From Congzhengia minquanensis (lineage in GTDB: Bacteria; Bacillota; Clostridia; UBA1381; UBA9506): a DNA stretch of 64,000 nucleotides. Shown in pieces: positions 30,657-53,605 of this stretch. The stretch spans positions 434,001 to 498,000 of the forward strand of contig NZ_JACRSU010000002.1 of the NCBI RefSeq assembly GCF_014384785.1, written 5' to 3'. The notes under the pieces are model-generated. The model saw only the letters and a program-made list of their open reading frames with translations, did not search any database and was not told the DNA's origin. The position numbers and the translations under genes were made by a program. Position 1 is the stretch's first letter. The number at the start of each line of letters is the position of its first letter.

Positions 30657-31184
30657 TCACGATGACCGAATAACATATTCTACAAATTCTCTTGCCCTGT
30701 TTCTCAAATCATCAAAACTACCATTATTTTCAACTATATAATCATAATCATAATTTTTTGCAGTCTGTGCATCTGCATGGTTTGACCTAATAGCTTCTAC
30801 TCCATTCCTTATAACAAAAACTGTTTTTGCATTAAACGCTTGTTTCATTCTGTCAATTGCTGAAATTTCACGAGCATCTATAAATAAAAACTTATACTCA
30901 TCATCAAACATACTAATTTGCTCATTATCCAAAAAATCATCTACTAAACTTTTTACATCTTTAAATGGCTGGTCGTTATATTCAGAAGACAGTGTGTTTA
31001 AATCTGCTAAAAACTTTCTGTCTCTTTCCGTTTTCCCTCCACCCCAGCCAAAATATTCCATAGCAGCTTCTTTACTATTTGAAACATAAGAATAATGCAT
31101 TGATGGAATAAATTCTTTAACAAACTCAACAAATTTATCCTTACCACTTGTTGCAGCCCCGTTTAAAATAAAAATTCTTTTCGT
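30657..31184 (-). CDS. Deoxynucleoside monophosphate kinase, likely ACG start
   Basis: 175 residues if started at ACG 31184. The open frame from the first ATG (31100) would omit the P-loop. Extending to ACG restores KRIFILNGAATSGKDKF, a textbook P-loop N-terminus, with GGAGG exactly eight bases before ACG; no ATG, GTG or TTG fits. Later segments (FIDAREISAIDRMKQAF, KTVFVIRNGVEAI) match phage dNMP kinases, which phosphorylate dNMPs including dTMP. It is located between the redoxin and ThyX genes. Confidence 0.75.
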   Translation of the reverse strand, partial: TKRIFILNGAATSGKDKFVEFVKEFIPSMHYSYVSNSKEAAMEYFGWGGGKTERDRKFLADLNTLSSEYNDQPFKDVKSLVDDFLDNEQISMFDDEYKFLFIDAREISAIDRMKQAFNAKTVFVIRNGVEAIRSNHADAQTAKNYDYDYIVENNGSFDDLRNRAREFVEYVIRSS

Positions 31185-31188
31185 ATTT

Positions 31189-31395
31189 TTATCCTCCTGT
31201 ATATAAATTTTCTAAGTTATCAAAATAATGTAATTTGTCTTCAAAATTTAGATTTAAATACTCTTTTATTTGTTCTTGCGTTAATATCCAAATACCCGTA
31301 GTAATTGTTTCCTTGTTATATGTATAAAAGCACTGAATTACTGTATCATGTCTTGAGCACTCTTTTCTCCTTAATTCTCTTTTATAGTTATTCAA
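31189..31395 (-). CDS. Small phage protein
   Basis: 68 residues starting TTG behind GAGGTAGCTTA. It is basic at the start (YKRELRRKE) with one ITTGIWILTQEQ strand-like segment. Family not recognised. Its last codons supply the ribosome site of the dNMP kinase gene. Confidence 0.5.
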   Translation of the reverse strand: MNNYKRELRRKECSRHDTVIQCFYTYNKETITTGIWILTQEQIKEYLNLNFEDKLHYFDNLENLYTGG

Positions 31396-31399
31396 TAAG

Positions 31400-31666
31400 C
31401 TACCTCGTCCAAAAGTTTTCTCCAGATTTCGTTTTTACTATGTGATTCACGCACGCCGTAATGAAGTCTTTATACTCATGGCAATCAAAAACAATCTTAT
31501 ATTTTGCTCCACATTTGCATTTTGATAATAATATACTGGTATATCCTTTTGCTCCCGTATTAGGTTCATACTGTTCTCTTAATCCACGATAGATTTCATC
31601 TACATACAATTGATTGAAACATTCGGCGCAAACCATATTTTTAAATTGAATTTTAAATTTTTTCAA
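31400..31666 (-). CDS. Small zinc-binding phage protein
   Basis: 88 residues from TTG at 31666 (GGAAAG upstream); the TTG overlaps the ThyX stop (TTGA). CAECF near the start and CKCGAKYKI in the middle form a probable zinc ribbon. Function unknown. Confidence 0.55.
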   Translation of the reverse strand: MKKFKIQFKNMVCAECFNQLYVDEIYRGLREQYEPNTGAKGYTSILLSKCKCGAKYKIVFDCHEYKDFITACVNHIVKTKSGENFWTR

Positions 31667-32340
31667 TCTCTCACTTTCCTTCCACAACTATTATTTTCTG
31701 TACATTTACCATAAAACTCACATTTTGGAACAAATAAATTATCCACAATCCATTTCCATTCATCGGATATTTTTGACAACTCATTTTCAATGTCGTAAAA
31801 TAGTTCTTGAAATTCCCAATAAGCACGGCTGCATTTACGGACGTGGCTCATTTCAACTAAACTGCGAAGATTACGCTTGTCCACAATTTTTGTAGTCATA
31901 CCAAGCGGAAGTAAGTTTGCAACATCTTCTTTAGGTATATTATAGTCGTTTTCTAAAATTGCACACTGTTCATTTATATAGTTCATAACTCCGCAATACA
32001 AGGATAATGCCTCTCTGTTTGCTTTAATTTTGGGCGGTACTGCAAAACCAAAACCTTTATTTGCATAATCTATGTATCGTGTTGATGACTGCAATCTTGT
32101 TGGTGCGCCAGCAATATGGGTGTAATATTCACGGATGACGCGTGAGCTATAGCTGTCAATAATCATTTCGACATTAACATATTCAAAACTGCGCCCGTGT
32201 CCCGATTTTATACAATCCATGCCACGTCTATAATTTTTCTTGTCGTCCGTTATGTCGCTACCGTAACAAATAGCACTTCTCCTGCCAATTAAAGATATTG
32301 GCTTGCGCGTTGTTTCTTCTAAAATTGTAATTTTACCTAT
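31663..32340 (-). CDS. thyX: FAD-dependent thymidylate synthase, likely ATA start
   Basis: 225 residues if started at ATA 32340. The first ATG (32220) would cut off 40 family-typical residues, including SLIGRRSAICYGSD. GGAGG lies seven bases before ATA, and the frame is closed by TAA just upstream, so no ATG, GTG or TTG is available. Catalytic region: SGHGRSFEYVNVE, then IREYYTHIAGAPTRLQSSTR, the ThyX signature in the variant form. It makes dTMP from dUMP with methylene-THF and FAD, completing the dUTPase-ThyX-dNMP kinase route. Confidence 0.8.
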   Translation of the reverse strand: MGKITILEETTRKPISLIGRRSAICYGSDITDDKKNYRRGMDCIKSGHGRSFEYVNVEMIIDSYSSRVIREYYTHIAGAPTRLQSSTRYIDYANKGFGFAVPPKIKANREALSLYCGVMNYINEQCAILENDYNIPKEDVANLLPLGMTTKIVDKRNLRSLVEMSHVRKCSRAYWEFQELFYDIENELSKISDEWKWIVDNLFVPKCEFYGKCTENNSCGRKVRD

Positions 32341-32630
32341 GGTTGTTCCTCCTTATATACACTCAATATCAATGCTTTATCAGCAAGGTACTCTGTATCC
32401 TTTCTTCTCCATAAATTGCCTATTGGTTTTACTTTATATACAATAGGGCTACCACCATATTTATCTGCACATTTATAAGCAAATTTTTGTGCAGATAATA
32501 GTGAGTCTGTAACATAAACTTGATTGAGATTTGCTTTTCTCCAATCTTCTCTTAAATTACCTGTTATATTTGGTGGTAATATCACCCTATGTATATTAAA
32601 AATTGTTGATGTTCCGTGATAATATATCAT
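32337..32630 (-). CDS. Small phage protein (ART-like start HGTS)
   Basis: 97 residues. The N-terminus IYYHGTSTIFNIHRVILPP and VYVTDSLLSAQKFAYKCADKYG, with a GSPIVYKV strand, resemble the fold start of ADP-ribosyltransferase-like phage proteins, a weak call. No ribosome site precedes the ATG. Its last codons overlap the ThyX ATA start. Confidence 0.5.
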   Translation of the reverse strand: MIYYHGTSTIFNIHRVILPPNITGNLREDWRKANLNQVYVTDSLLSAQKFAYKCADKYGGSPIVYKVKPIGNLWRRKDTEYLADKALILSVYKEEQP

Positions 32631-32642
32631 TGAATATTAGAT

Positions 32643-33074
32643 TTATTGTAGATAGTAGTAAGTTATATACTCTATCATCTTATTTTCATCATCAAAACTC
32701 TTCCAAATACAATCCTCAATCCAAGGATGTAGTTCTTGCTTGTCCTCGTTTAAAGCAATCACCGGAATACGATACTCGTCTGCTATGGCAAGTTCTTGGC
32801 TACTACCTATTGATTTACTAAAGTTTGCAAGATTTACAATTACCAAATCAGATTTCTTCAACATATGTAATTCAAACTGTCGTACTTCATGCTCACTGTC
32901 ATAATCTGTAGTTTCGTAATTATAATATGTACAGGGGTCAAACACCTTAATAGGGATGCCAATGTCCTTAGCAGAGTTTTGAATCTTATTTTTTATTCGT
33001 ATTCGCCACTCCCGTGCTTCTTTCAGTGAAAGCCCCGTTATTGAGCCACACAAATAAATGGTTTTAATATGCAT
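32643..33074 (-). CDS. Nucleoside 2-deoxyribosyltransferase-like protein
   Basis: 143 residues behind TATGGAGGTAGCAA. IYLCGSITGLS at the start, KSDLVIVNL in the middle and SIGSSQELAIADEYRIPVI match the deoxyribosyltransferase-like/DUF4406 fold (Glu in SSQEL as expected nucleophile). The family moves deoxyribose between bases or hydrolyses nucleotides; related proteins also occur in NAD-sensing defence. Among nucleotide genes a salvage role is most likely. Confidence 0.7.
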   Translation of the reverse strand: MHIKTIYLCGSITGLSLKEAREWRIRIKNKIQNSAKDIGIPIKVFDPCTYYNYETTDYDSEHEVRQFELHMLKKSDLVIVNLANFSKSIGSSQELAIADEYRIPVIALNEDKQELHPWIEDCIWKSFDDENKMIEYITYYYLQ

Positions 33075-33984
33075 TTGCTACCTCCATACTTTTTCTATAA
33101 GAATATTCGCCATAGTACATAGATTCCGCATCATTTCTTGCCTTAATAGCATCTTCCTTTGTGTTATAAACTCCTAAATAAACTGTTTGATTTTTATAAC
33201 CAATACTCGCACACCACTTGTCTTTATATGCATACACACCATTTATACCATTCGGGTTTGTTATTTTTGTATTCATCATATTTTGCTGTTGTGTGACGAT
33301 TCTTAAATTAATTTTTCTGTCGTCTGTTGTAATATGGTTGATATGGTCTACAATAAACTCTTTTTCATCTAATTCTGTTGCTCTCATAACCAATCTATGA
33401 AGACGAATTTTTTTATTATTATGGATTTCTGAATGTCCTACTACATAGCCGTATGCGTCAATACTCCAACTTATATTTTTTATTTTGTCATAATCTTCTA
33501 AATCAAAATAAAATTCAACATTATTGTTTGTATAACCAATGCCATATTCTCCTGTTAAGTCGTATTTATTTGTTTTAGCATTAAGTTTTCCAACTTTGGC
33601 TGCTGATTCATTTTTAAGACATCCGCAAGACTGTGTATTTCCATTTCTTAAACAATGCCCAAACACTCTAACAGTATTACCACACTCACACTGACAAATC
33701 CACATAGCATAACCATGTTTTGAAAATCCGTCTTGCTTAAGCACGGTTAATCTTCCAACCTTTTTACCAGTCATATTTTTAAATTTGCCACCAGCATAAC
33801 AGCCACAAGATTTAGTGTTACCACTTCTTAAACTTGCTCCCGAAACCACTGTTGTTTCACCACAATCACAAACGCATTTCCACATTATGTATGAATGTCC
33901 TTTGGGTGTAATTTTATTTTCGGCTCTTTCAACAACTGTTAGCATACCAAATTTTTGTCCAGTTAAATCTATGAAATTTCCTAT
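33064..33984 (-). CDS. HNH/AP2-type homing endonuclease, likely ATA start
   Basis: 306 residues if started at ATA 33984, six bases after AGGTGG, giving the usual N-terminus GNFIDLTGQKFGMLTV; the longer ATG frame (34056) overlaps the upstream gene. Two repeats of FGxLTV...CxCDCG...SGNTKSCGC form zinc modules. An HNH core (IRLHRLVM, VDHINHITTDDRKINLRIVT) follows, with an AP2-like C-terminus (GVYAYKDKWCASIGY). Such genes are selfish insertions cutting DNA at specific sites. It separates two ordinary early genes. Confidence 0.75.
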   Translation of the reverse strand: MGNFIDLTGQKFGMLTVVERAENKITPKGHSYIMWKCVCDCGETTVVSGASLRSGNTKSCGCYAGGKFKNMTGKKVGRLTVLKQDGFSKHGYAMWICQCECGNTVRVFGHCLRNGNTQSCGCLKNESAAKVGKLNAKTNKYDLTGEYGIGYTNNNVEFYFDLEDYDKIKNISWSIDAYGYVVGHSEIHNNKKIRLHRLVMRATELDEKEFIVDHINHITTDDRKINLRIVTQQQNMMNTKITNPNGINGVYAYKDKWCASIGYKNQTVYLGVYNTKEDAIKARNDAESMYYGEYSYRKSMEVANAY

Positions 33985-34021
33985 TGGACACCACCTACTT
34001 TCATCGCATAAAACTTCTCTT

Positions 34022-34288
34022 TTATATGCATCCTCCACAACATCCGAGCGAAACATTGTTATTTACACATTCTTCTATCTCGTCTTTGTACTTTAAAAAT
34101 TGTTGTGGAACATCGATGCTCCACAATCCCTTACTAATATGTTCGCCACCTTTTGAGTCAAAATAAGTAGTGCCACCAGAGTTCATACAATATTTAGGCA
34201 TTGGAACTGTTTTCCCATCTATTTTTAGTATGAGTTTGCCCCTGCAAAGATTTGGATATCTACCGTCATATGACACAAATTCAACCAT
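34022..34288 (-). CDS. Small phage protein with C-terminal CCGGC
   Basis: 88 residues from ATG 34288 behind AAGGAGTTGATTTG. SYDGRYPNLCRGKLILKIDG at the start and a C-terminal SLGCCGGCI. Family not recognised. Confidence 0.55.
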   Translation of the reverse strand: MVEFVSYDGRYPNLCRGKLILKIDGKTVPMPKYCMNSGGTTYFDSKGGEHISKGLWSIDVPQQFLKYKDEIEECVNNNVSLGCCGGCI

Positions 34289-34306
34289 CAAATCAACTCC
34301 TTTCTG

Positions 34307-34849: not shown

Positions 34850-37800
34850 TTAAATAATTTTGTATTTTTCAACCCACCATTCTTTTTCTGTACTATCTAC
34901 CCATTTACCATTTACTTTTTTCTTCTTATGTTTCTTGTACTGTGACTCAACTTTTATAATATCGCCACGCTTAATTGGATTTTCTGCATATATTTTCTTG
35001 GTAATTTTTACAGGAATTGTATTACCATTTGCAAGAGCATAAAGTTTAATCTTTGGTGAATATTCGACATTTATATCTGTTGCAACACAATAACCTGAAA
35101 ATTTTTTATCAATGATGTCAACATAATCCATAATAGCAAATCCTTTTTGAATTATGTCTTTCCAAGAATCTTCTTTGTTCTCAATTCCTTTTATGAGTTC
35201 ATTTAAAATACCTCTTGCATCAATTCCCATAAAGGTTAATTGTGTTTCAGACTTGCAATGATTTCGTATAATGTCAAAATCTATATTGTTTTTAAGAGCA
35301 TTTTCTTTTTTATACTGAACCAAATACTTTTTGTTTTTGTAAAACATCAAAAAAAGTTCAAGAACTTTCTTTAAATATTCCATTCCACCAAAATCACTAA
35401 AATAGTTAATATCAATCAAATCAACTATCCTTGCTTCAGCAATTCCGTTTTCTCTCAATACTTCAAGTAATTCAATGAAAGTTGAGCATTTTATGTCTTT
35501 TATCTCATACAATATATCCGCAATTTTCTGTGAAAAAGACTTAATTGACAGCAAGGATGGATTGATACAATGATTTTCTTTGTCTATCGAAAATTGTCTA
35601 TTGTCCTTTCCAAACTTGTAACTTCCATTTTTAATACCAAAAGCCCTTTGCATTTCTTGTTTATAGGCAGTTACTTTGTCTTTTTCTCCTTTTTCCGAAA
35701 GGTGTTGCATCATAACAGAATAAAACTCATAAGGATAATGTGCTTTTAAATATGCCCCATAAACACTATCATAAGCATAAGAGTAAGCGTGTGAAGCATT
35801 AAAAGCATATTTTGAAAACGCTTCAACAATATCCCAAGTCTTTTCAAATCCACATTCTTCACCAGTGTTTTTAATCCAACCTGCTAAAAGTTTCTCTTTT
35901 AACTCTTTTAGTTCTTTTTCTTTAAATTTCTTTTTACTGATTTTTTTAATAATTGCATAGGTTTCTGTCTGCTCTATACCAAGCCATCCAAGATATGTCA
36001 TAACATTTTCTTGGTACATTATGTAATGGAAACTATCTTTAAGAATTTCGTCAAGCTCTTTTATTCCTGTTGAATATGGCTTTCTATCCAAGAAATTATC
36101 AAGCTGGGTTTTAAATCCGGGGCGAAGTGCTGCGACAAGTGCCGTTAACTCTTGCATACTCCTTGGAGCATACCTCATACAACAACTTCTGCCAAATTCA
36201 GACTCACACTGATTTATTCCCATAGTGTATCCGTCAGCATATATCTTCCAAGTTTTATCATCATTTTCAACTATCTTAGTTATCTCTGGAACTGTATATG
36301 TAGGAATTCCAATCTTCTCAAAAATCTTATTGATAGTAAGCCATATATCAACTTTCAACAAATCATTTTTAACAAACTTATAGTTTTCTGCTACCATCCC
36401 ATCAATAACAGTTGTGATAACACTTTTTTCTTCATCTGTACCATCGTCATTGCCAGAAACACATCTTATAAGACCAATCTCTCTTTTTATATCTCCTGCA
36501 TAAATCAAATAGCCACAAGGAGCTTGAGATTTTGCATTGATAATTCCTTGGTATTTTTTGCTTTCATCTAAAAGCGGATGATATTCTTTATCAACAAAAT
36601 CATAAAGGTTAATTTGTTCTTTTTCTTCAGGCGAATCAGCGTGTTTTAGTGCTTTTTCGTATTGTGCAATCTGTGCCGTTATCTCGTTTGCAATATCAAA
36701 ATCAAGACCTTGTGACTTTGCATACAGTTTAAAAGCTGAAGATTTTTGCAAAGGCTTATAAGAAATCATAGGGTATGCATGTCCGCCACTACCACATATC
36801 TCTGTCATTATTTCATCTTGAGCCTCGGCAAATACTTCAGGATTGCCAAGATTGAGGTCAAGGTCTGGCAAACTTCTCGTCTCTAAAATTCTTGTTTTTG
36901 ACATAAACCTATCGGGGTATAGTTTTACAGGAGAAATAAATCTGTCTATATTACTAAATCCAAGCAAAGAATTTGAGTAGTAAGAAACACCGCTGCCTCG
37001 ACCTGTTTTTGTAATTATGCCGCCTTTTTCAAGCCCCCTTTTTACAAGTTTGTAGTCAATTAAAAAATAATCAGACATATGAGTGTCAATGATTGCATTT
37101 AATTCATACTCAATACCTTCCTCATATTCCTTAATTCTTGTGAGGGGGACAGTAGGTTTAATTTTATCCCATTCTTCATAAACAATTTCTTTTAACCAAT
37201 TGTCTTTTTCATCTTGTGTCATATTCAAATCGCAAGGGGGGAGTTTTATTTCTTTATCAAAATACAAATCGTCAAATGACAAGATAACATCTGTGTTTTC
37301 GATACATCTGTTAATTTCTTCTTCGTTAAGAACACCTTGTTTTAACAATCTTTGTCTTACAATATCTTCTGAAGGATAATCCATATACCACCCTATTTCG
37401 TCATCCTCGGCAATATTGTAATTTTTTCTTCTTGTTGATATGTAATTATCTCTTTCCGTGTTATCCTTTTCTTCTATGTAATGACTATCATAGCCAAAGA
37501 TAATGTCTATCCCATACTTTTTACTCAATTCAAGTATTCTTTTATTTAGTTGTTTTTGTGCATCTGTATTGTGATATTGTACTTCTAAATAGAAATTATC
37601 TTTAAAGTGACTATGCAGGCATTTTGTAATTTCTTCTATGTCATCATATTTCCAATAGGCAATACAGGCAGTTGTAACAAACACATTCTCTGGTTTAATT
37701 CTTAGCAACAACTCTAAATCAAGTCTTGGTTGTCCGTAATATCCATCTATATTAGCATCGGAAAGAGCTTCGTTTATATCTCTTCTACCTTCTTCATTCT

Positions 37801-38197
37801 TTGCTAACAAAACTATATGACAATTACTTCTGTCTTTTTTTGTAAGAATATTACCGCTTTTATCTTGCTTGATTTCTCCCGTTTCCTTATCTTTTATGGG
37901 ATATTCTTTTTTTCTATCCTTTACCCAATATGCTTCAGCACCAAAAACAAATTTTAATAAACTGTCTTTGTATTCTTGTTCTGTTATCTCTCCGTTTTCA
38001 AACTTCTCTTTTACTTTTTGATTATTTTTTTGCACCAATTCATAGGGTTCATAATAATTAGATTGAAACCCATGCTCAACACTTGAAATAACCTTGTGTC
38101 CTAGTTCCTTGGCTCTTTTTACATAATCTTCATAAGAAGTGGCACAATCTGCAACTAAGACATTTGAAAAGTAAGTATGTTTATGATAGTTTTGTAT
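34850..38197 (-). CDS. dnaE: DNA polymerase III alpha subunit, likely ATA start
   Basis: 1115 residues if started at ATA 38197. The first conventional start (TTG 38038) would delete the PHP-domain start IQNYHKHTYFSN and ISSVEHG. AAGGAG lies eight bases before ATA, and the stop of the upstream gene is in frame just before, excluding other starts. The PHP domain (to about 280), palm (PDLDLNLGNPEVF with catalytic Asp residues, GRGSGVSYY), fingers and helix-hairpin-helix follow; no PolC exonuclease. It should be the phage's replicative polymerase. Confidence 0.85.
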   Translation of the reverse strand: MQNYHKHTYFSNVLVADCATSYEDYVKRAKELGHKVISSVEHGFQSNYYEPYELVQKNNQKVKEKFENGEITEQEYKDSLLKFVFGAEAYWVKDRKKEYPIKDKETGEIKQDKSGNILTKKDRSNCHIVLLAKNEEGRRDINEALSDANIDGYYGQPRLDLELLLRIKPENVFVTTACIAYWKYDDIEEITKCLHSHFKDNFYLEVQYHNTDAQKQLNKRILELSKKYGIDIIFGYDSHYIEEKDNTERDNYISTRRKNYNIAEDDEIGWYMDYPSEDIVRQRLLKQGVLNEEEINRCIENTDVILSFDDLYFDKEIKLPPCDLNMTQDEKDNWLKEIVYEEWDKIKPTVPLTRIKEYEEGIEYELNAIIDTHMSDYFLIDYKLVKRGLEKGGIITKTGRGSGVSYYSNSLLGFSNIDRFISPVKLYPDRFMSKTRILETRSLPDLDLNLGNPEVFAEAQDEIMTEICGSGGHAYPMISYKPLQKSSAFKLYAKSQGLDFDIANEITAQIAQYEKALKHADSPEEKEQINLYDFVDKEYHPLLDESKKYQGIINAKSQAPCGYLIYAGDIKREIGLIRCVSGNDDGTDEEKSVITTVIDGMVAENYKFVKNDLLKVDIWLTINKIFEKIGIPTYTVPEITKIVENDDKTWKIYADGYTMGINQCESEFGRSCCMRYAPRSMQELTALVAALRPGFKTQLDNFLDRKPYSTGIKELDEILKDSFHYIMYQENVMTYLGWLGIEQTETYAIIKKISKKKFKEKELKELKEKLLAGWIKNTGEECGFEKTWDIVEAFSKYAFNASHAYSYAYDSVYGAYLKAHYPYEFYSVMMQHLSEKGEKDKVTAYKQEMQRAFGIKNGSYKFGKDNRQFSIDKENHCINPSLLSIKSFSQKIADILYEIKDIKCSTFIELLEVLRENGIAEARIVDLIDINYFSDFGGMEYLKKVLELFLMFYKNKKYLVQYKKENALKNNIDFDIIRNHCKSETQLTFMGIDARGILNELIKGIENKEDSWKDIIQKGFAIMDYVDIIDKKFSGYCVATDINVEYSPKIKLYALANGNTIPVKITKKIYAENPIKRGDIIKVESQYKKHKKKKVNGKWVDSTEKEWWVEKYKII

Positions 38198-38209
38198 ATT
38201 ACCATCTCC

Positions 38210-38998
38210 TTATGGTTTATATTCACAAGCACAGTTTCTCATATCGCATAAATTATTACAAAAATACTTTTGAGGGTTAGGAAACCAAGATGTTTCCTGT
38301 TCTATACTCTTTATCGTATCTTCTGCCCACTTCTTTGCCTCTTTAAATTCTTCGTCTTTAAATTCAAAGGTAAGCCAATTTCTATCCTTAAATAAATTCC
38401 ATTTCAAATATTTTGGCTTAACTCCATATTCCTCAATAACACCTATTGAGTATAAATATAATTGTCTTTTAAACCCTAAAATGTGTTCTTTTTCTGATGA
38501 ACTGATTTCACCATTTTTCTTAAAATTAACACTACCGCTTTTATGGTCTAAAACAATTATGTCTCCTTTGATTTTATCTTTTAATAGTAAGTCAATATAT
38601 CCCACCATTTCATAGTCAAATATCTTAAACGTTACTTCTTTTTCAACTCCAAGCACCTCGTAATTTTCAAGGTCTAAGTCAATATTGTCAAGATAATCAA
38701 GCCCCTTGTCATAATAAGACTGTTTTATGTCTATATACGGATTAGGAGGAGCATCACAAGTGACAACATCGTTAAACCTATTCTCATAGTATTGCGATAT
38801 TTCAAATATGGATAACTCCTCCTTTTCATATTTTTCTAAAATTTCGTGCATCAAACTGCCGTATTGAGCAAAAAAATTCTCATCGCCCTCAACGCAGTCA
38901 ACGTACTTTAATCGCCAGCCGTATGGACATTGATGATATGAACTTAACCTTGAGAAACTCCAAACCATCGAATCAATTATAAAACTATCTTTATTCAT
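38210..38998 (-). CDS. PD-(D/E)XK nuclease (RecB/Cas4-like)
   Basis: 262 residues behind AGGAGAAACA. VWSFSRLSSYHQCPYGWRLK at the start and YGSLMHEILEKYEK are PDDEXK_1 signatures. The active site is EMVGYIDLL...IIVLDHKSG (Asp, Asp-x-Lys). A C-terminal cluster CNNLCDMRNCAC with the N-terminal Cys can hold 4Fe-4S as in Cas4/AddB. It is likely a phage exonuclease for recombination, placed between polymerase and helicase. Confidence 0.85.
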   Translation of the reverse strand: MNKDSFIIDSMVWSFSRLSSYHQCPYGWRLKYVDCVEGDENFFAQYGSLMHEILEKYEKEELSIFEISQYYENRFNDVVTCDAPPNPYIDIKQSYYDKGLDYLDNIDLDLENYEVLGVEKEVTFKIFDYEMVGYIDLLLKDKIKGDIIVLDHKSGSVNFKKNGEISSSEKEHILGFKRQLYLYSIGVIEEYGVKPKYLKWNLFKDRNWLTFEFKDEEFKEAKKWAEDTIKSIEQETSWFPNPQKYFCNNLCDMRNCACEYKP

Positions 38999-39006: not shown

Positions 39007-40923
39007 CTATTTGTCGGGAAATTCATCTTCTAACGACCTATCAACATAAGGTAATTTTTCTGTATAAATCTTCTTATCCCAAGCAAATTTTGCATCATAT
39101 TCATCATAATCTGTATAAAATCTTCGTGATACTATGTCATACCACATACCCATTTGAAAGTCTGTTTTGCCCAAAAGCCTGTCCTTTATGACGGTCAGTA
39201 CAACATCATATTTTCCCCACTTGGATTTCGGGTCGTCTTTTTCTTTTTTTGATACTCGCCTAAGACCAATGGAACGCATTGCAAGGTTAATAATATTTGA
39301 TGTACCCGATATATCATACATTTCAATGTCTGAATTTGAGTCTTGTGTTTTTCTGGGATGTGCTATAAGAACTACCGCCACATTAAATTTAGCGGCGAAT
39401 TTAATCAAGTTATTTATCAGGTTGGTTTGTGCTGTGTTTTTATCGCTTTCTGAACAATGCAAATCCAACATCATAAGGTTGTCCAACACAATTAGTTTGC
39501 AACCGAATTTTCTTACACATTCTTCAGCAGATTTAAGAACAGATGCTACATCATTTGGTTCATCATCTCTGTATATAAAGAGTTTTTTGCTATAAAAACT
39601 CTGCATTTGCTTTTGAATATCATAGGGAACAACATAATATTTTCTGCCGTCAGCACTTGATTTTTCTGCCATATTTCTGCGACCTGCTATAATGGCATTA
39701 AACCAATTTGCACTCATTCTTTCAGGCATTTCCTTTGAAAACAGAAACGCTGACTTGTCAGTATCAATGGTGTTAGCAATGGCTTGGTCTATTATAGAAC
39801 TTTTACCGCTTCCGGGGCGGCCAGACAATATTGTAAGAGAGCCATAGAATATCTTCAATAACTCATTATCCAATGGCTTAATACCTGTTTTTACACCATC
39901 CATTTGAGAGATGTCCAATTCGTCAATCTCCGAATAATCAATAACGCTTTTTACAGGAACATCTTTTGCATCTGAAATCAAATTCATTACAAAATCTGCA
40001 CCACCTACCTGTAAGCAGTCGTTAATGTCATTCAATGGAATTTTCTTGCCATTTTCTTTTTCAAAGTATTTTGGAGTCGTTATGTATTTAGTTCTCCAAG
40101 TGCCAAGTCTATAAATACATTCCTTTTTCATAGCCTCGCCCGGCTCGTCATTGTCTGCCCATATAAGAATAGACTCAAAGCCATTTAGCCAGTCCCAATT
40201 CTCTTCCATCCAGTGATAATTACCAGCACCAAACGGAACACTTACTGTATTAAGATACCCTGCTTCAATAGCACTCGCACAATCTGTTTCACCTTCTGTA
40301 ATAAGTAAAGGTTTTGATGTGTTTACTCTATTCATATTGAATAATATTGGAGCAGTATCAGCATCTTTTTGACACCAAGTTTTTGCTTGTCCAGACTTTT
40401 TAGGGATTGTTTTTGCTGGTCTGTACTTAACTAATGTCAATACATCATTTGTATCATAATAATTGAAAACACCATTACCTTGTGAATCTTCTCTTATATC
40501 AAGATAATCAATTACATTTTTTGAGATACCTCGCTTACCCCAATAATCAATAACATTCTTTCTATCTGTTAAAGGCACTTCTTGAGGATATCTGTAATCT
40601 CTTTTTGTCTTAACATCTTGTTCTCCAAAACTGTATTTAACACCAGCTTTTTCAAAGAGATATTTAACTGATCGTAAAAAAGTGTTTCCTTTCTGCATTA
40701 AAATATCTATAATATCAACTGTCTTGTTGCATCCAAAACAGTGAAATGAGTAATTCTTTTTGTTGTATATAAAGCTTGCTGTGTCTTCGTTGTGATAAGG
40801 GCAGCAAGCCTTTAAGTTCTTATCGTCAAAATCATTAAGTTCAAGTAACTCAGCCATTATAAAAGCATTATCATCACCAAGTTTACTTTTTGCTTTTTCG
40901 ATGTCCTTTTGTTCAATTAGCAA
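39007..40923 (-). CDS. Primase-helicase fusion (CHC2, TOPRIM, DnaB-like)
   Basis: 638 residues from TTG 40923, eight bases after AGGTGG. A CHC2-type zinc site (ACCPYHNEDTASF...FHCFGC) at about 40-70, TOPRIM LLITEGETDCASAIEAG at about 205, then a RecA/DnaB ATPase with Walker A LSGRPGSGKSS and LIVLDNLMMLDL. It is organised like T7 gp4 or Twinkle, unwinding DNA and priming lagging strands. It overlaps the preceding 124-residue gene by 11 bases. Confidence 0.9.
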   Translation of the reverse strand: MLIEQKDIEKAKSKLGDDNAFIMAELLELNDFDDKNLKACCPYHNEDTASFIYNKKNYSFHCFGCNKTVDIIDILMQKGNTFLRSVKYLFEKAGVKYSFGEQDVKTKRDYRYPQEVPLTDRKNVIDYWGKRGISKNVIDYLDIREDSQGNGVFNYYDTNDVLTLVKYRPAKTIPKKSGQAKTWCQKDADTAPILFNMNRVNTSKPLLITEGETDCASAIEAGYLNTVSVPFGAGNYHWMEENWDWLNGFESILIWADNDEPGEAMKKECIYRLGTWRTKYITTPKYFEKENGKKIPLNDINDCLQVGGADFVMNLISDAKDVPVKSVIDYSEIDELDISQMDGVKTGIKPLDNELLKIFYGSLTILSGRPGSGKSSIIDQAIANTIDTDKSAFLFSKEMPERMSANWFNAIIAGRRNMAEKSSADGRKYYVVPYDIQKQMQSFYSKKLFIYRDDEPNDVASVLKSAEECVRKFGCKLIVLDNLMMLDLHCSESDKNTAQTNLINNLIKFAAKFNVAVVLIAHPRKTQDSNSDIEMYDISGTSNIINLAMRSIGLRRVSKKEKDDPKSKWGKYDVVLTVIKDRLLGKTDFQMGMWYDIVSRRFYTDYDEYDAKFAWDKKIYTEKLPYVDRSLEDEFPDK

Positions 40924-41287
40924 TCGACTTACCACCTACATTTCCGAATTCTTTTTCCCAAAACATTTTTCTCAATCCATATAGAATGTGAACAGGTTTA
41001 TCTTCGTAATAAGTTTTTGAATTTTCAATACTTCTCAAAATAAACTCTATTGGAACTTTATACTTGAAAACCAATGTGTTTATTGCTCTCATTGCTAATG
41101 GATATTGAGCTTTATCTTCGATATAGGACATATATAAGTCCACACATTCCTTAATTTCTTGTTTTCTCGTTGCACAGTCCCAATGGTAATGTCTTTTGTT
41201 TATCACCACGGATTCTGAGGAATTAACCTTTTCTCCGTGGTGTAAACATTTTTGACCATAGGCACAGACATACTTTTTGTCTGTCAT
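40913..41287 (-). CDS. Zinc-binding phage replication-region protein
   Basis: 124 residues behind AAGGCACAGAT. The N-terminus CAYGQKCLHHG...YHWDCATRKQE supplies two Cys and several His for zinc; the rest is helical. Its place between SSB and primase-helicase suggests a helicase loader or accessory role, but there is no direct evidence. Confidence 0.6.
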   Translation of the reverse strand: MTDKKYVCAYGQKCLHHGEKVNSSESVVINKRHYHWDCATRKQEIKECVDLYMSYIEDKAQYPLAMRAINTLVFKYKVPIEFILRSIENSKTYYEDKPVHILYGLRKMFWEKEFGNVGGKSIAN

Positions 41288-41720: not shown

Positions 41721-42665
41721 TTACGCCTGTACTGCCTTAATTCCCTGTATTTTTTCTAAACATTTCCTTGCATCATCTATTGATTTAATTGCGTTGGGGT
41801 TTCCACTTGGAACGAATGCCTTTAATGTTGTCATCAATTCCTCGTTCTTCGTTCCACCCAAAGCACCACAAGTTGCAACAATTTCTTTCTTAATTTCTGC
41901 AATATTGTCTGTTGTAGCAGTGTCTTCATCGTCTTTTCTTACTACGGGCGTATATCCTTCACCGGAATTTGCCCATTGCATAATCTTTTCGCCGTATGTT
42001 TCGTTAAGAAGCGTTGCGGTTTCATTTTCAAAGATATGTGTATTATCTTTCTGTGTTTCAGCCATATGAGTTTTTTGGTCAATCAATAATGTGCAAGTAA
42101 ACTCGTATTCAAATCCATCTCTCTGCTTTGCACCAACCCCAAGTTTCTTAACGCTTGTCTTACCCTTTTCATCTTTTTCAACTTCATACTGGTCTTTTCC
42201 ACGCATTGTTGCAATAATATGAATAGGACTATCGGCAATAGCTTCGATAAACTTATTATGTCTTGGCGTAACCTTCGCCCAAGCCTGATATGTACCACCT
42301 GCTTGCTGTTGAAGTTCAAGACATCCACCCTTACCTTCCCACTCGTGAGAAGAACTATCAATAATCAAAATTCCATAACCTTCGCTAACAGCAAAGTTTA
42401 CAAATTCAACATACTTCTCAGGATTATGTGGGGCATCAATATCAACGATGTCATAATCAAATTCATCTGCATAGTAATATCCACGCTTTGCTTCTGTGTT
42501 CCCAAGCAAAATCTTAGGGCGAGTACCCGTCTGTTTTTCAATTTCATTAGCCATGCCAGTTGCGAGTCTAAGTGCTGAATATGTTTTACCACCGCCACTT
42601 GGACTCATAAGAGCCACTTTTACATAAATTTTCTCTCTCTTTGCCTTTTTTATCTGAAATGCCAA
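41721..42665 (-). CDS. Sak4-like RecA-fold ATPase
   Basis: 314 residues starting TTG eight bases after AGGAGG. Walker A MSPSGGGKTYSAL at about 20-32, Walker B GILIIDSSSHEW, and THIIATMRGK-like sensor segment. This AAA_24/Sak4 family binds ssDNA and anneals strands with SSB; the adjacent ssb gene fits. A C-terminal helical tail is probably an SSB-interaction region. Confidence 0.8.
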   Translation of the reverse strand: MAFQIKKAKREKIYVKVALMSPSGGGKTYSALRLATGMANEIEKQTGTRPKILLGNTEAKRGYYYADEFDYDIVDIDAPHNPEKYVEFVNFAVSEGYGILIIDSSSHEWEGKGGCLELQQQAGGTYQAWAKVTPRHNKFIEAIADSPIHIIATMRGKDQYEVEKDEKGKTSVKKLGVGAKQRDGFEYEFTCTLLIDQKTHMAETQKDNTHIFENETATLLNETYGEKIMQWANSGEGYTPVVRKDDEDTATTDNIAEIKKEIVATCGALGGTKNEELMTTLKAFVPSGNPNAIKSIDDARKCLEKIQGIKAVQA

Positions 42666-44119: not shown

Positions 44120-44563
44120 TCACTGTTTGCACACTAAAATTTCAATGCTTACATTGTTAAAAACATCTTTGATAATTTCAGAAACCTTATCCCACTGTAA
44201 TCTGTCCATCCCACAACCAATAACCGGCATGGCCAACTTTGTTACATAAATTTCGCTACATAAATCTTTCATTTTTACTAAAGCAGCTTTTAGAGATTCA
44301 TAAGTAGGCTTCATCCAATACCTTTCTTTGGTAATTAGATTAAATACTCTATCTTGCTGAATACAATCACCAATCATTCTGTTATGATGCCACTGATTGA
44401 TATAATCAGGATAAGTCTTCTGTAACTTTCTCTTCATATCAAATCGTTCATTAAATTCTATAACGATTCCTTTACCCATTCCAAAATCTGCACTGATACA
44501 ATGTGCTAAATAATAATCTTCTGGAACAGAAAATAAATCTCTATATTCTTCTTTGTAAGTCAT
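44120..44563 (-). CDS. Macro-domain protein
   Basis: 147 residues behind AAAGGAGTAAATAA. LAHCISADFGMGKGIVIEFNE at the start and KLAMPVIGCGMDRLQW are the ADP-ribose-binding loops. Macro domains bind or hydrolyse ADP-ribose and ADP-ribose-1''-phosphate. Its position next to a Thg1-family gene suggests a role in RNA repair or reversal of ADP-ribosylation, which is inference. Confidence 0.85.
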   Translation of the reverse strand: MTYKEEYRDLFSVPEDYYLAHCISADFGMGKGIVIEFNERFDMKRKLQKTYPDYINQWHHNRMIGDCIQQDRVFNLITKERYWMKPTYESLKAALVKMKDLCSEIYVTKLAMPVIGCGMDRLQWDKVSEIIKDVFNNVSIEILVCKQ

Positions 44564-44608: not shown

Positions 44609-45454
44609 TTATTCCTCGCCAACATTAACCAATCTATCTATATATTCTCTGCCATCGCCTTTGAAAATCGGAATATCTTTGTCGATAATCCATCGAGTTC
44701 TAATTGGCACACTAGAGTCTGTAGAATCAATATCATTGTAATCTTCATATCTTTCTTTAACGCAACAACTTCCACGTTTCTGATATATAGGCAAATCATT
44801 CCAATTGATACCTTTATGAGTCATCAACATATCCTGAATATCATTACAAGACTTATTCTGTAACTCTTTATGACTGAAATTAGCCTGTCCCACCATCTGA
44901 ATACTGTTACGAGAAGCATCTAACTGTCTCCAATATATGAGATTAGTCACTTCTTCTTTTGGGATATTGAAGCAACGTGCATCAAACATAGCACCTTTAT
45001 CTATAGCATTTCGATAAACTTCTAATAACCTGCTCCATTCATGTTCGGCAAAATCATTTGGTTGCATATCTTCAAAATTAAAAACATTACTTTCAAATGC
45101 TTGATTAAAAGCTATTGTCGCCATACTTGCACTAATAGAGCAAAGTTTCTGTACTTCGTAATCAAACCATGCAGCACTTGTAAACTTCTGATAATCAATC
45201 AAAATCAATGTGATCTCATCAGACTGCGTATATCCGAGTACACATCCTTGAATATTTTCACAAAGAAATTTTGTGGTTTCCTGCATAGTCTTCATTAAAA
45301 TCTCATCAAAAGGTTTATGAAATCCTCTTGTAAATGTGTGGAACGCCTTTCCGTCAATGCGGATGGCAACTGGCGTTCTTCTCATTAGCTTAGTTTTCGG
45401 TATCTGCTCGTAGAATGTCTTCATACGAATACCTAAATCATCATGTACCGGCAT
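44609..45454 (-). CDS. Thg1-family 3'-5' polymerase
   Basis: 281 residues behind GAGGAAGAATAAT. VAIRIDGKAFHTFTRGFHKP at about 29-48 and GYTQSDEITLIL at about 74-85 provide the metal-binding Asp34, Asp79 and Glu80. Eukaryotic Thg1 adds G to tRNA-His; bacterial and phage Thg1-like proteins repair 5' tRNA ends by templated 3'-5' addition. Full length and intact. It may restore tRNAs damaged by host nucleases. Confidence 0.88.
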   Translation of the reverse strand: MPVHDDLGIRMKTFYEQIPKTKLMRRTPVAIRIDGKAFHTFTRGFHKPFDEILMKTMQETTKFLCENIQGCVLGYTQSDEITLILIDYQKFTSAAWFDYEVQKLCSISASMATIAFNQAFESNVFNFEDMQPNDFAEHEWSRLLEVYRNAIDKGAMFDARCFNIPKEEVTNLIYWRQLDASRNSIQMVGQANFSHKELQNKSCNDIQDMLMTHKGINWNDLPIYQKRGSCCVKERYEDYNDIDSTDSSVPIRTRWIIDKDIPIFKGDGREYIDRLVNVGEE

Positions 45455-46319: not shown

Positions 46320-47049
46320 TTATTTGATATATGTAAAAAGTTTTTCAATCCTTATGTTGTTTTTATCAGCTTTTGATTTATTACTATCCAACAACGTCTT
46401 AGTTTCTTTTTGCCAAATACAAGTAAAATCATCTGGCATAGAATATTCGCTTATCAAAACTGTATTATTTACACTTGCTACCTTAACCCACTCATAAAAT
46501 TCTTCATATGGGAAAGAATCGGTAGCATATTTAGTAGTTCCTCGATAAGGAATGTCGCAATAAATAACATAATTTTTGATTTTATCTAATGGTAGCGATT
46601 GAAAATTTAAATTTATAAATTTAACATCCTTAATATTAGAAATCTGTTTCTTTAAATTTCTGATTGCACCAGCAGACCATTTGCCACTATTGTCATCTTT
46701 TGAATCCCTTGCATATCCACCAAAATACTTAGCACCGAAACTCGCACAAAATCCTACAAGACCTAAATACCAGTCTGGATAATTTTCTTTGTTCTGCTTA
46801 ACTTCCTTATATTCATTCTCTAAAATTCTTTCTGGCAATTCCGTTTCATGTTCCTGTGCATATTTTAATAATTCAATCAACTGTTTATGTATATCACAAC
46901 CTATTCTTTTCCTACACTTAATTTTATCAATCATGTTTTGCACCGCCAACAAAAGGCTCTAGATAACCATTTGTGTCATCAGTTACATAAGCCTGGATAA
47001 TTGGTGCTAAATCCTTACTTAATTTGTTCTTACTTCCAACGTATCTTAT
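46320..47049 (-). pseudogene. D12-class DNA adenine methylase, frameshifted, ATA at start
   Basis: Two frames form one enzyme. From ATA 47049: RYVGSKNKLSKDLAPIIQ and GYLEPFVGGA then stop. From about 46952: MIDKIKCRKRIGCDI and YCDIPYRGTTKY (DPPY-type catalytic motif read as DIPY). Removing one A from the AAAA run near 46940-46945 restores FVGGANMIDKI. An in-frame ATG at 47073 is followed after five codons by TGA. It methylates adenine when intact, probably against host restriction. It could be an assembly error. Confidence 0.75.
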
Positions 47050-47092
47050 TTTCTTTCACCAGAAAGGTGACATGTCCTTAGTAGCTACCCTA

Positions 47093-50065: not shown

Positions 50066-50071
50066 ATAATC

Positions 50072-50471: not shown

Positions 50472-50477
50472 TATTTA

Positions 50478-50873: not shown

Positions 50874-51039
50874 TATCCGTCACCTCGCTTTCGAGCCATT
50901 GCATCACCTCGCAAACGCTTCCATAAATAAATTTGCCGTTAATAATTTTACAAAAGATTTCCTCATCATCAGATATGGTCAAAATAAAATTAGCCATTTC
51001 CTCCACGCTCATATTTTTAACACGCTCATAGTTTGTCAT
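50866..51039 (-). CDS. Small phage protein, 57 residues
   Basis: ATG 51039 behind GGGAGCGTGAGCAGCA. TNYERVKNMSVEEMANFI, then CEVMQWLESEV. A common small phage protein of unknown role, translationally coupled to the YopX gene. Confidence 0.65.
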   Translation of the reverse strand: MTNYERVKNMSVEEMANFILTISDDEEIFCKIINGKFIYGSVCEVMQWLESEVTDNA

Positions 51040-51293: not shown

Positions 51294-51333
51294 TGTCTTT
51301 ACTCTCCTTTTTGGCCGCATTTTACCGTGTTTT

Positions 51334-51471
51334 TCATCTTTTTTTAAGCTCCTTTCCAGAATGCATATCAAAACTACAAATATCTCTAAATGAACAATTT
51401 ATGAAATTCACACAACTATTACATGGTGGTATTTCACACTCTTTCGTTGCTATAAAAGGACATTTATTCAT
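51334..51471 (-). CDS. Small Cys-rich phage protein
   Basis: 45 residues, ATG 51471 behind GGAGCAACAAACA. Seven Cys (KCPFIATKECEIPPCNSC...NCSF...IC) suggest metal binding. Possibly followed by a 12-residue ORF (51299-51337). Confidence 0.5.
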   Translation of the reverse strand: MNKCPFIATKECEIPPCNSCVNFINCSFRDICSFDMHSGKELKKR

Positions 51472-52090
51472 TGTTTGTTGCTCCTTCCACATAACACCAG
51501 CTTTGCGGCGGACGTGTCAGCGGTTTTATTTTACATTCCCTGCACCAGTCCATTTCTGCTTTTTTTGTACAAGCATATCCGCCTAAAAGCAATGCACCGT
51601 TTGTATAATTAGGATTGTTATAACACCGCTCTCTGTATTTGCACGCTTTTACTGCTGTTTTGTCAATCATATTAAAATCACTCAGCTCTTTCGGTTTGTC
51701 ATAAATAACAAGGTTGGATATGTGCCATGCGCAAAGAAATTTACCGCACGCATAACTGTGTACTTCGCTTTCAGTGAGCAGCGCTCCGAGCGTACACAGC
51801 TTTTTTTCATTTTCGTGCGCATCTCCAGATAGATAATCCCATTTATCCGTTGCGATATTGTGCAATTTCGTAATGCCGCCACACGCAAACTCCCCTATGA
51901 CTTTACCCGAAAAATCAGTATAAATGTTCCTGTCTCGTTCTTTGGCTGTAACGCCACTATGCGTACAGTAAATATAACACTTAAACGGTGTTTCAATCTT
52001 CGGGCGTGTCTTGCGTACCTCAATTGTTTTGCTTCCATTTGCGATAAGCTCACAATATTTAGGCTTAATGCTTATTAATACTGATTTCAC
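51464..52090 (-). CDS. ASCH-domain protein
   Basis: 208 residues starting GTG behind GGAGGCTGAAGAAAA. SVLISIKPKYCELIANGSKT and EVRKTRPKIETPFKCYIY is the ASCH/PUA-like RNA-binding start, typical of phages. A Cys-rich C-terminus (CKYRERCYNN, CTKKAEMDWCREC) may bind zinc. Likely RNA- or nucleotide-interacting. Confidence 0.8.
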   Translation of the reverse strand: MKSVLISIKPKYCELIANGSKTIEVRKTRPKIETPFKCYIYCTHSGVTAKERDRNIYTDFSGKVIGEFACGGITKLHNIATDKWDYLSGDAHENEKKLCTLGALLTESEVHSYACGKFLCAWHISNLVIYDKPKELSDFNMIDKTAVKACKYRERCYNNPNYTNGALLLGGYACTKKAEMDWCRECKIKPLTRPPQSWCYVEGATNNE

Positions 52091-52281
52091 TTTTCTTCAG
52101 CCTCCTTAGGCGGTTCCGGCAGTGGCATCCAATGGGTAATATGTTTTTGTGTTGCGTGTTTTCCTTGCCATTTGCCGTTGACTGTTTTTTCTGCTACACT
52201 TATACCATAACAAGTATAGATAAGGACTTTACCGTCTTTCCATGTTGGCAGCCTGTCCTTGACGCTTATCCAGTTATTCAT
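52087..52281 (-). CDS. DUF551 phage protein
   Basis: 64 residues. NNWISVKDRLPTWKDGKVLI and HWMPLPEPP are the DUF551 signatures. Function unknown. Overlaps both neighbours by four bases. Confidence 0.85.
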   Translation of the reverse strand: MNNWISVKDRLPTWKDGKVLIYTCYGISVAEKTVNGKWQGKHATQKHITHWMPLPEPPKEAEEK

Positions 52282-52793
52282 TGCTCCCCCTCCAAATCAA
52301 TTTGCAATTTTGCCAGCTCCGCCGCTGCACGGTAGACTTGCCCATGTTTGTTGTCGCTGTGTGTTTCATTGACTTGCGCTAAAAAATCTTCTATGCTGCC
52401 GTTAAAACAGCCGCAGGTTACCGATATACCATTGTTTTTATTGCGATAAAATGTAGTGGTGCCATTCCTGCTTCCAGCCGGGCCAAAAGTCATAATATGT
52501 TCCATTCTATAAACCTGTGCATTGCCATAAACCAATGCATTGCCATAAACCAATGCGTCGCCATAAACCCATGCGTCGCCATAAACCCATGCCTCGCCAG
52601 AAACCCATGCGTCGCCATAAACCCATGCAGAACCTTCCTGGCTTAAATTATCCTCTTTTTCAACCCATCCGCCTAAATCTCCGGCATGTATAATTGTGCC
52701 GTCTAATAACTCAAAATCCTTTAACGCCCTTATACGGTAAAGTGTTCTGCCTAAAAATTCTTTCTTTTCTTTCGTTAATTCATATTTTTTCAT
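52278..52793 (-). CDS. Beta-solenoid repeat phage protein
   Basis: 171 residues. FELLDGTIIHAGDLGGWVEKE is followed by about eight hexapeptide repeats (AWVYGD, ALVYGN) at about 55-96, which should fold as a left-handed beta helix. The coding DNA is an 18-base tandem repeat (52520-52625). The C-terminal part ends in a helix. Common in phages; role unknown. Confidence 0.75.
   Translation of the reverse strand: MKKYELTKEKKEFLGRTLYRIRALKDFELLDGTIIHAGDLGGWVEKEDNLSQEGSAWVYGDAWVSGEAWVYGDAWVYGDALVYGNALVYGNAQVYRMEHIMTFGPAGSRNGTTTFYRNKNNGISVTCGCFNGSIEDFLAQVNETHSDNKHGQVYRAAAELAKLQIDLEGEQ
52520..52625. repeat. 18-bp tandem repeats inside the beta-solenoid gene
   Basis: Consecutive units close to ATAAACCCATGCGTCGCC encode the VYGDAW hexapeptides. 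Unit-number variation by slippage is likely. Confidence 0.85.
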
Positions 52794-53233
52794 TCTTCAC
52801 TGCCTCCCATTTTCGCGCCGCATTTAGGGCAATAGTTAAAATTAGAAGAAAAACCGTCAACTTCATCATAATGACAATTTGAACATCTGATATATGACCC
52901 TCGTTCCGTATCAGCGATTTCCCACTTGCCATGCACCACGAACGCAGTGCCTATTGTACGGTTACGCTCCTTAATTAGTTCTTTCTCCAACCGCTCTATT
53001 TTTCTTTTTTGCCTTCTGATTTCCTCATTCTGTCTGCATATCTCGTCCGTCAAGTCCCGCTCGCAGCGGATATTGTTATATTCATAGCGCCCGACAACCT
53101 CGCAGAGATAACATTTTCCACCGCTTGTAAAATTTGAATTTGTGTCTAAAATCTGCAAAATTATATCTTCGCAGTCCCGTATATTTTCAAGTGTGTATAA
53201 TACAAATCTGCTGCTCTTATGTGTTTTTACCAT
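52790..53233 (-). CDS. Coiled-coil zinc-ribbon phage protein
   Basis: 147 residues from ATG 53233 behind AAAGGAGCGGAATA. Central coiled coil (RQKRKIERLEKELIKE), then CSNCHYDEVDG...NYCPKCGAKM, a classic phage zinc ribbon. Unknown function. Confidence 0.75.
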   Translation of the reverse strand: MVKTHKSSRFVLYTLENIRDCEDIILQILDTNSNFTSGGKCYLCEVVGRYEYNNIRCERDLTDEICRQNEEIRRQKRKIERLEKELIKERNRTIGTAFVVHGKWEIADTERGSYIRCSNCHYDEVDGFSSNFNYCPKCGAKMGGSEE

Positions 53234-53416
53234 TATTCCGCTCCTTTTCACTCCACGCCGCAATCATCATATACTGATAACGGGGTGGTTTTTTGAATCC
53301 ATGTGAATTAGTAACTTTAATATCTTCTCTCGCTTGTGCTATTTCCAAAACATTCAGCGCAGAGGAAATTTCTATTCTCGCCGCAGTCTTTACTCAGCTG
53401 GGAGATTCCCTCGCTA
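53234..53416 (-). other. Interval without a convincing gene
   Basis: Frames are short and lack ribosome sites. Locally higher GC around 53380-53460. Nothing identified. Confidence 0.3.
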
Positions 53417-53605
53417 CTATCCTTGCCGCTGGGAAATTGTGTGGGAGAGAAGACGAGGATTGATTAATTTTCTCCCGCACATAGGGCAGTAGTTAATTTT
53501 GCGATACACCCCATAGCCAACAATTAATCTATCTCCGTCAAATATGTCCGTGCCCTCTCCGTTGGGTGATGTGCAGTACTTACAGCCATAATTACACTTA
53601 AATAT
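53417..53605 (-). CDS. Zinc-ribbon phage protein with ATA at start (or frameshifted)
   Basis: 62 codons from ATA 53605: FKCNYGCKYCTSPNGEGTD and INYCPMCGRKL, a normal phage zinc ribbon. In frame upstream is ATG GCA TGG TTT TAA (53626) with a good AAAAGG site, then two codons, then ATA. Removing one A from a run of six would instead join ATG 53621 to the frame. Both readings are open. Confidence 0.5.
   Translation of the reverse strand: MFKCNYGCKYCTSPNGEGTDIFDGDRLIVGYGVYRKINYCPMCGRKLINPRLLSHTISQRQG

What the first reader, a model, noticed from the sequence alone, without database searches (positions are those of the whole stretch)
31182..53605. Several phage genes have ATA or ACG where the start codon should be
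For dNMP kinase (ACG 31184), ThyX (ATA 32340), HNH endonuclease (ATA 33984) and DNA polymerase III (ATA 38197), conserved N-terminal residues continue upstream of the first ATG. An AGGAGG-type site lies 6-8 bases before ATA/ACG, and no ATG/GTG/TTG fits. The D12 methylase (ATA 47049) and a zinc-ribbon protein (ATA 53605) look alike but are also disrupted. The host part shows no such case. Possible reasons are deliberate weak initiation of early genes, mutation, or assembly substitutions.
Basis: partly seen in the sequence, partly recalled or inferred. Interest (0 to 1): 0.75.

Follow-up and report, generated by a model that had tools for sequence, protein, structure and literature searches.

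The report
Phage replication genes with weak starts
Several genes of this bacterial virus, including its DNA polymerase, appear to begin at very weak start codons (ATA or ACG) instead of ATG, and related viruses keep the same kind of weak start in several DNA-copying genes, which suggests that they hold these enzymes at low or regulated levels in the same way as the bacterial gene for initiation factor IF3.

Summary
The core observation is real. In the window's prophage, DNA polymerase III (ATA 38197), ThyX (ATA 32340), an HNH endonuclease (ATA 33984) and dNMP kinase (ACG 31184) have a Shine-Dalgarno site before a non-canonical codon, and homologues start at that codon. The D12 methylase (ATA 47049) has the same start layout but its frame is broken. 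The zinc-ribbon case has no ribosome site and is not supported. Assembly error and plain decay fit poorly: in viral contigs from many samples, orthologous replication genes carry AUA, AUC or AUU at the same position. Primase has AUH in 18 of 20 aligned loci (AUC one codon upstream in the other two), the DnaB-type helicase AUA in 15 of 18, the ERCC4 nuclease AUH in 16 of 21 close loci, and the polymerase AUH in two separate groups beside UUG and AUG. These starts have stronger, more often start-proximal Shine-Dalgarno sequences than AUG starts in related contigs. The architecture matches infC, the IF3 gene (AUH in 23 of 24 recognised Clostridia loci). Best explanation: selected weak, probably IF3-sensitive initiation of phage replication and nucleotide genes. 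Non-AUG starts are known; their recurrence across phage replication genes looks new. No expression data exist here.

The parts
34850..38197 (-). DNA polymerase III alpha (PHP domain), start ATA 38195-38197, SD AAGGAG 38206-38211, 12 nt after the stop of the upstream PD-(D/E)XK gene
   Evidence: relatives carry ATC, ATA, ATT, TTG or ATG at this codon
31663..32340 (-). ThyX, start ATA 32338-32340, SD AAGGAGG 32348-32354; start overlaps the TAG stop of the upstream ORF
   Evidence: L008, L024, L025, L026 have ATG here; nearest database protein P0121 is truncated
32337..32630 (-). 97-aa ORF upstream of ThyX whose stop overlaps the ThyX ATA (ATAG)
   Evidence: no Pfam match
30657..31184 (-). deoxynucleoside monophosphate kinase, start ACG 31182-31184, SD AGGAGG 31193-31198
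   Evidence: (just under the Pfam cut-off); P0241 has M at this residue, P0242-P0245 are truncated
33064..33984 (-). HNH endonuclease, start ATA 33982-33984, SD AGGTGGTG 33989-33996; alternative in-frame ATG 34056 without SD
   Evidence: ATG at this position in L077, L095, L166-L168, L171, L172, TTG in L152, GTG in L007/L068/L080 (one contig)
46320..47049 (-). D12-class DNA adenine methylase, start ATA 47047-47049, weak SD GGTGA 47056-47060; in-frame stop 46927-46929, remainder in another frame (broken gene)
   Evidence: homologous starts ATG (L094), ATA (L101), TTG (L171, L172)
53603..53605 (-). ATA in front of a zinc-ribbon-like frame: no SD, not counted as a case

Best explanation
These are genuine translation start sites. 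The phage uses near-cognate initiator codons (AUA here, AUA/AUC/AUU in relatives, occasionally ACG) behind a strong Shine-Dalgarno site, so that replication and nucleotide-metabolism enzymes are initiated weakly. Shown by sequence: position, SD, orthologous starts, recurrent AUH with a free third base, an SD stronger than at AUG starts, and the same architecture as infC. Inferred: fMet initiation at these codons in the cell, reduced yield compared with AUG, discrimination by host IF3 as at infC, and that low or IF3-tuned dosage of catalytic replication enzymes is what selection keeps.
For: Polymerase orthologues carry ATC (L001, L006, L008), ATA (L007) and ATT (L041, L047, L066) at the same codon; in L006/L008 an in-frame TAA with one codon between leaves no room for an upstream start. 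On the polymerase tree AUH needs 4 changes (at least 3 forced) in two separate groups when the ambiguous L002 is counted as canonical (5 and 4 when counted as AUH). Primase: AUA 6, AUC 11, AUU 1, plus 2 with AUC one codon upstream, of 20 aligned loci, none with an upstream in-frame ATG/GTG/TTG. Helicase: AUA 15, UUG 3 of 18. ERCC4 nuclease: AUU 12, AUA 4, AUG 5 of 21 close loci (families). Orthologous-start test: 14 rows with SD and no canonical codon within six codons, 10 of them ATA/ATC/ATT/ACG. SD reaching GGTGA at 15 of 30 orthology-based or reader-named starts against 22 of 229 ATG starts. infC in Clostridia: 23 of 24 recognised loci have AUH plus SD. In S. aureus, AUA/AUU starts with extended SD gave about 10% of AUG yield in poor medium and up to 30% for ccpN in rich medium (PMC13009471, passages).
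Against: No expression, proteomic or ribosome data. ThyX, HNH and D12 relatives use ATG (some TTG or GTG) at the same place, so weak starts are not fixed in every gene. Polymerase orthologues include ATG and TTG versions, 77 of the 120 listed database clusters have M at the conserved position, and the AUH label is not significantly clustered on the tree (85 of 500 shuffles as low). All 15 AUA helicase loci have an in-frame GTG three codons upstream within the SD, 6 of them an ATG beside it, and 10 of the 12 AUU nuclease loci have such a GTG; I judge these too close to the SD to serve but cannot exclude them. The window's own four sites do not reach the extended GGTGA form. Part of the 39 starts behind the mean SD energies was picked for strong SD. 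The DNA-metabolism bias is only suggestive: 8 of 20 against 6 of 40 controls, p 0.05, with a set partly chosen by function.
Confidence: 0.82

Rival explanations
1. Mutational decay: the prophage is degrading and start codons were hit by transitions, leaving weak or dead genes.
For: The D12 gene is frame-broken. ThyX relatives and about half of the HNH rows have ATG or another canonical codon at the same position.
Against: The polymerase, ThyX, HNH and kinase frames are open over full length. AUH is kept across orthologues with many protein changes, for example primase at 82-100% identity, and AUC one codon upstream at 70%. Near-cognate codons make up 10 of 14 clean replacements. SDs are strong, not decayed.
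Confidence: 0.06
2. Assembly or sequencing error at these codons.
For: No reads were available; the window's own genome is not held.
Against: AUH codons at the same positions appear in contigs of several separate samples for primase, helicase, nuclease and polymerase. Near-identical polymerase (P0001) and close ThyX (P0121) proteins on other contigs are truncated by gene callers in the same way; whether those contigs come from independent samples is not known.
Confidence: 0.03
3. Regulated switch: the AUH starts make phage replication answer to IF3. Initiation is held down while IF3 is normal and released when infection lowers or modifies IF3.
For: infC-like architecture. Phage effects on IF3 are reported: phiYS40 lowers IF3, T7 gp0.7 is listed as acting on IF1/IF2/IF3 (PMC3594737, passages).
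Against: No IF3 homologue in 17 phage records, several of them fragments. The three phage tRNA-Met genes found in 29 loci lack the GGG/CCC initiator stem by my reading. No time-course data; constant attenuation explains the same sequences.
Confidence: 0.22
4. Translational coupling: ribosomes terminating on the upstream gene reinitiate at the non-AUG codon, so that codon identity matters little.
For: ThyX overlaps the upstream stop, the kinase is 4 nt and the polymerase 12 nt from one.
Against: Distance to the upstream stop does not differ: 21 of 36 non-canonical and 101 of 188 ATG starts lie within 15 nt (p 0.72).
Confidence: 0.12

Closest known systems
infC (IF3) AUU/AUC/AUA start with IF3 autoregulation
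   Same: AUH codon with free third base, strong GGAGG-type SD, spacing 6-9; seen here in 23 of 24 recognised Clostridia infC loci
   Different: Host gene under its own product; the phage genes are replication and nucleotide enzymes, and no IF3 gene was found in 17 phage records
S. aureus ccpN (AUA) and cvfC1 (AUU) with extended SD (PMC13009471, passages)
   Same: Near-cognate start plus extended SD, conserved among relatives, lowers yield
   Different: Chromosomal genes, experimentally shown; here phage genes, sequence evidence only
E. coli pcnB AUU start (seen only in the reference list of PMC13009471)
   Same: Weak start limits an enzyme acting on nucleic acid
   Different: Single chromosomal gene
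Streptomyces sigR GTC start, IF3-repressed (PMC5472188, passages)
   Same: Non-canonical start used to hold down expression through IF3
   Different: GTC codon, sigma factor, cellular gene
Streptococcus thermophilus phage TP-J34 orf28 AUU start (PMC3952083, passages)
   Same: A phage gene with a predicted AUU start, re-sequenced to exclude error
   Different: One gene, in the region amplified with terS primers; no conservation or wider pattern described in the passages seen

Membership tests
Genes with IF3-discriminated non-canonical starts (infC type) | Start codon is AUA/AUC/AUU (or another near-cognate) at the true N-terminus | tested here: met
   Codons and orthologous starts; the N-terminus itself was not measured
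Genes with IF3-discriminated non-canonical starts (infC type) | Strong or extended SD compensating the weak codon | tested here: met
   the window's four sites are strong but not of the extended GGTGA form
Genes with IF3-discriminated non-canonical starts (infC type) | Conservation of the weak start among orthologues | tested here: met
   Primase, helicase, ERCC4 nuclease, in part polymerase; not met for ThyX and HNH outside close kin
Genes with IF3-discriminated non-canonical starts (infC type) | Translation repressed by IF3, raised in IF3 fidelity mutants | not testable with these tools
   needs experiment
Phage genes started through a phage-coded initiator tRNA or IF3 | IF3 gene or initiator tRNA in the phage | tested here: not met
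   0 of 17 records with IF3_C; in 29 loci scanned, three tRNA-Met genes in two records, all without initiator stem by my reading; no tRNA in the prophage part of the window. Fragments and unscanned records leave room
Translationally coupled starts | Start nearer to the upstream stop than ordinary starts | tested here: not met
   21 of 36 against 101 of 188 within 15 nt

The most novel reading that the evidence does not exclude
A group of phages, many of them large, has built an 'IF3 regulon': helicase, primase, polymerase, nuclease and nucleotide genes carry infC-type initiation sites, so that onset and rate of phage DNA replication follow the cell's free IF3 level, a translational gate on replication shared by unrelated replication genes.
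Probability: 0.22. Interest if true: 0.87.

Novelty: new variant of a known kind. Interest (0 to 1): 0.7.

Why it matters
Gene callers usually accept only ATG/GTG/TTG, so such proteins are cut short in databases: 35 of the 120 listed polymerase clusters lack the N-terminal PHP motif. If the starts are used as inferred, non-AUG initiation is a recurrent, selected control of phage DNA replication rather than a curiosity of infC, and it gives a direct test of whether phages read the host's IF3 state.

Tried and rejected
Tried and rejected: (1) Phage-coded IF3 or initiator tRNA as cause: not found. (2) Translational coupling as the distinguishing feature: no difference from ATG starts. (3) First census with loose SD scoring: too noisy; replaced. 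In one search many ATA/ATT hits lay directly before an ATG and were dropped from the argument. (4) Search for the polymerase in 391 Clostridia-class genomes: 3 matches at 38-54% identity, not used; the start of one of the three was not read. (5) Zinc-ribbon 53605: no SD. (6) Near DNA search of phage records with 24.8 kb of the prophage: one record, 60 bases. (7) Weak rows (L130 at 24%, L026 at 26% identity) and the four non-near-cognate rows (AGT L007, GAT L006, GCC L047, TTT L012) are counted among the 14; GAT is the codon before the L006 ATC. Rows with a canonical codon within six codons were left out of the 14. (8) In one search, seven loci (L043, L049, L057, L058, L059, L061, L064) match the pattern but are not the polymerase and were left out. 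(9) L002 was first labelled AUH on the tree though a TTG precedes its ATT; recounted. (10) Literature: ten searches gave one phage AUU case and no report of a wider pattern; most subscription journals are not in that library.
Full report
What is there. The window holds host DNA up to a tRNA-Arg gene (25140-25215) and then an AT-rich prophage whose genes lie mostly on the minus strand. Four prophage genes have a strong ribosome site in front of a codon that standard gene callers do not accept: DNA polymerase III alpha (ATA 38197), ThyX (ATA 32340), an HNH endonuclease (ATA 33984) and dNMP kinase (ACG 31184).

Are these the true starts? For the polymerase the frame opens four codons upstream of ATA with no ATG/GTG/TTG, and the Pfam PHP match begins at residue 8 of the open frame. 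The first TTG start would remove 53 residues. For ThyX, four loci (L008, L024, L025, L026; the middle two near copies) have ATG at exactly this codon, and 119 of the 120 listed database proteins are at least 205 aa long; the nearest one (P0121, 95%) is truncated like the window's frame. For the kinase, P0241 (90%, 28 members) has M at the ACG position, while P0242-P0245 are truncated at the next ATG. For the HNH gene, 21 rows were aligned: ATG at the ATA position in 7, TTG in 1, GTG in 3 rows of one contig, ATG one codon later in 5, neither in 5. An in-frame ATG at 34056 exists but has no SD and lies inside the preceding gene. The D12 methylase fits as a start (ATG L094, ATA L101, TTG L171/L172) but its frame stops after 40 codons. 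The zinc-ribbon case has no SD.

Relatives. Viral contigs with the polymerase show ATC (L001, L006, L008), ATA (L007) and ATT (L041, L047, L066) at the same codon; L055/L067 have no canonical codon in 12 open codons but three AUH codons. L003, L035, L037, L051 and L052 have ATG, and L013, the L033 group and the L036 group TTG; L002/L005 have TTG followed by ATT; the others mostly start at an ATG a few codons upstream. On a tree of 27 distinct rows (9 of them in no label group) AUH needs 4 changes, at least 3 forced by well supported branches, in two separate groups, with L002 counted as canonical; with L002 as AUH it is 5 and 4. The label is not significantly clustered (85 of 500 shuffles as low), so gains and losses are frequent. 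Of the 120 listed database clusters, 35 are N-truncated before the motif, 77 have M at the conserved position, and 8 have a longer start, 6 of these with Ile at the conserved position.

A wider pattern. A census of 13 phage sets found 28 near-cognate codons (ATA 13, ATT 10, ACG 3, ATC 2) among 72 strong 5' SD sites without a canonical codon, against 49 of 510 at internal SD-like sites. G003 and MT835469 are related, so two genes are counted twice. Against the host pool the rate is 28 of 1417 to 1 of 288 (p 0.047). Candidates with a family include a DnaB-like helicase, a primase, an ERCC4 nuclease, a deoxyribonucleotidase-like protein, a nucleoside deoxyribosyltransferase-like protein, a D12 methylase and a phosphoesterase. 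Orthologues of three of them were then fetched. Primase: 20 aligned of 25 loci, AUA 6, AUC 11, AUU 1, and AUC one codon upstream in 2. Helicase: 18 inspected of 20 loci, AUA 15 and UUG 3. ERCC4 nuclease: 28 inspected of 29 loci; 21 close ones have AUU 12, AUA 4, AUG 5; seven distant ones (34-37%) have another N-terminus. Many loci are near copies of one phage group, so these are counts of contigs, not of events. The helicase loci with AUA, and most nuclease loci with AUU, have an in-frame GTG inside the SD; the primase loci have no upstream canonical codon. In L223, L230, L248, L249, L252, L254, L006 and L018 an in-frame stop lies upstream with only zero to two codons between, which excludes an upstream start.

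Context. Near-cognate starts have stronger and more start-proximal SDs: mean duplex energy -15.0 against -10.9 kcal/mol for ATG starts of related contigs, GGTGA reached at 21 of 39 against 22 of 229. The window's own four sites are strong but not extended. Distance to the upstream gene does not differ.

Mechanism. The same layout is found in the host gene infC: 58 of 60 Clostridia-class genomes have a match, 30 loci were fetched, 24 recognised by motif, and 23 have AUH behind a GGAGG-containing SD. In E. coli IF3 represses such codons and so its own gene (PMC5472188, passages). In S. aureus AUA/AUU with extended SD gave about 10% of AUG yield, up to 30% for ccpN in rich medium (PMC13009471, passages). 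I therefore infer weak, IF3-sensitive initiation. Whether it only sets a low constant level or also gates timing cannot be told from sequence. Phages that act on IF3 are reported (PMC3594737, passages), but no IF3 gene was found in 17 phage records, several of them fragments.

Function bias. By top PHROGs category, 8 of 20 near-cognate genes tested fall in DNA, RNA and nucleotide metabolism against 6 of 40 random canonical genes of related contigs (p 0.05). The near-cognate set was partly chosen by function, so this is suggestive only.

Known and new. Single AUU/AUA genes are known in bacteria, and one phage AUU gene is reported (PMC3952083, passages). I found no report of recurrent AUH starts across phage replication genes in ten searches of the held library. 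I rate it a new variant of a known kind.

Noticed in passing
window 46320-47049: D12 adenine methylase broken into two frames after 40 codons; relatives with a longer open frame exist (for example L101).
   Followed up: partly
L008, L013, L018-L021 (polymerase gene, about residue 445-450): The polymerase gene is interrupted at about the same place by roughly 1-1.2 kb with a stop codon, as an intron or intein insertion would look; the window's copy is uninterrupted.
   Followed up: no
window 25140-26465: tRNA-Arg(ccg) directly beside an integrase-like gene (named by eye), a likely attachment site; a second tyrosine-recombinase-like gene lies at 62335-63366.
   Followed up: no
window 44609-45454 and 44120-44563: Prophage carries a Thg1-like tRNA-His guanylyltransferase and a weak macro-domain match.
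   Followed up: no
L054 (helicase-primase start): Helicase-primase homologue with ACG at the orthologous start behind AAAGGAG; an in-frame GTG lies inside the SD.
   Followed up: partly
L140, offset 10034 on the minus strand: Transposase-like gene (IS605 OrfB by eye, not searched) with a possible ATA start behind AAGGAGGTGA.
   Followed up: no
window 39007-40935 and 41721-42665: Helicase-primase and RecA-like genes have a TTG start with SD here and in some relatives, so weak starts are common in this replication cluster even where the codon is canonical.
   Followed up: partly
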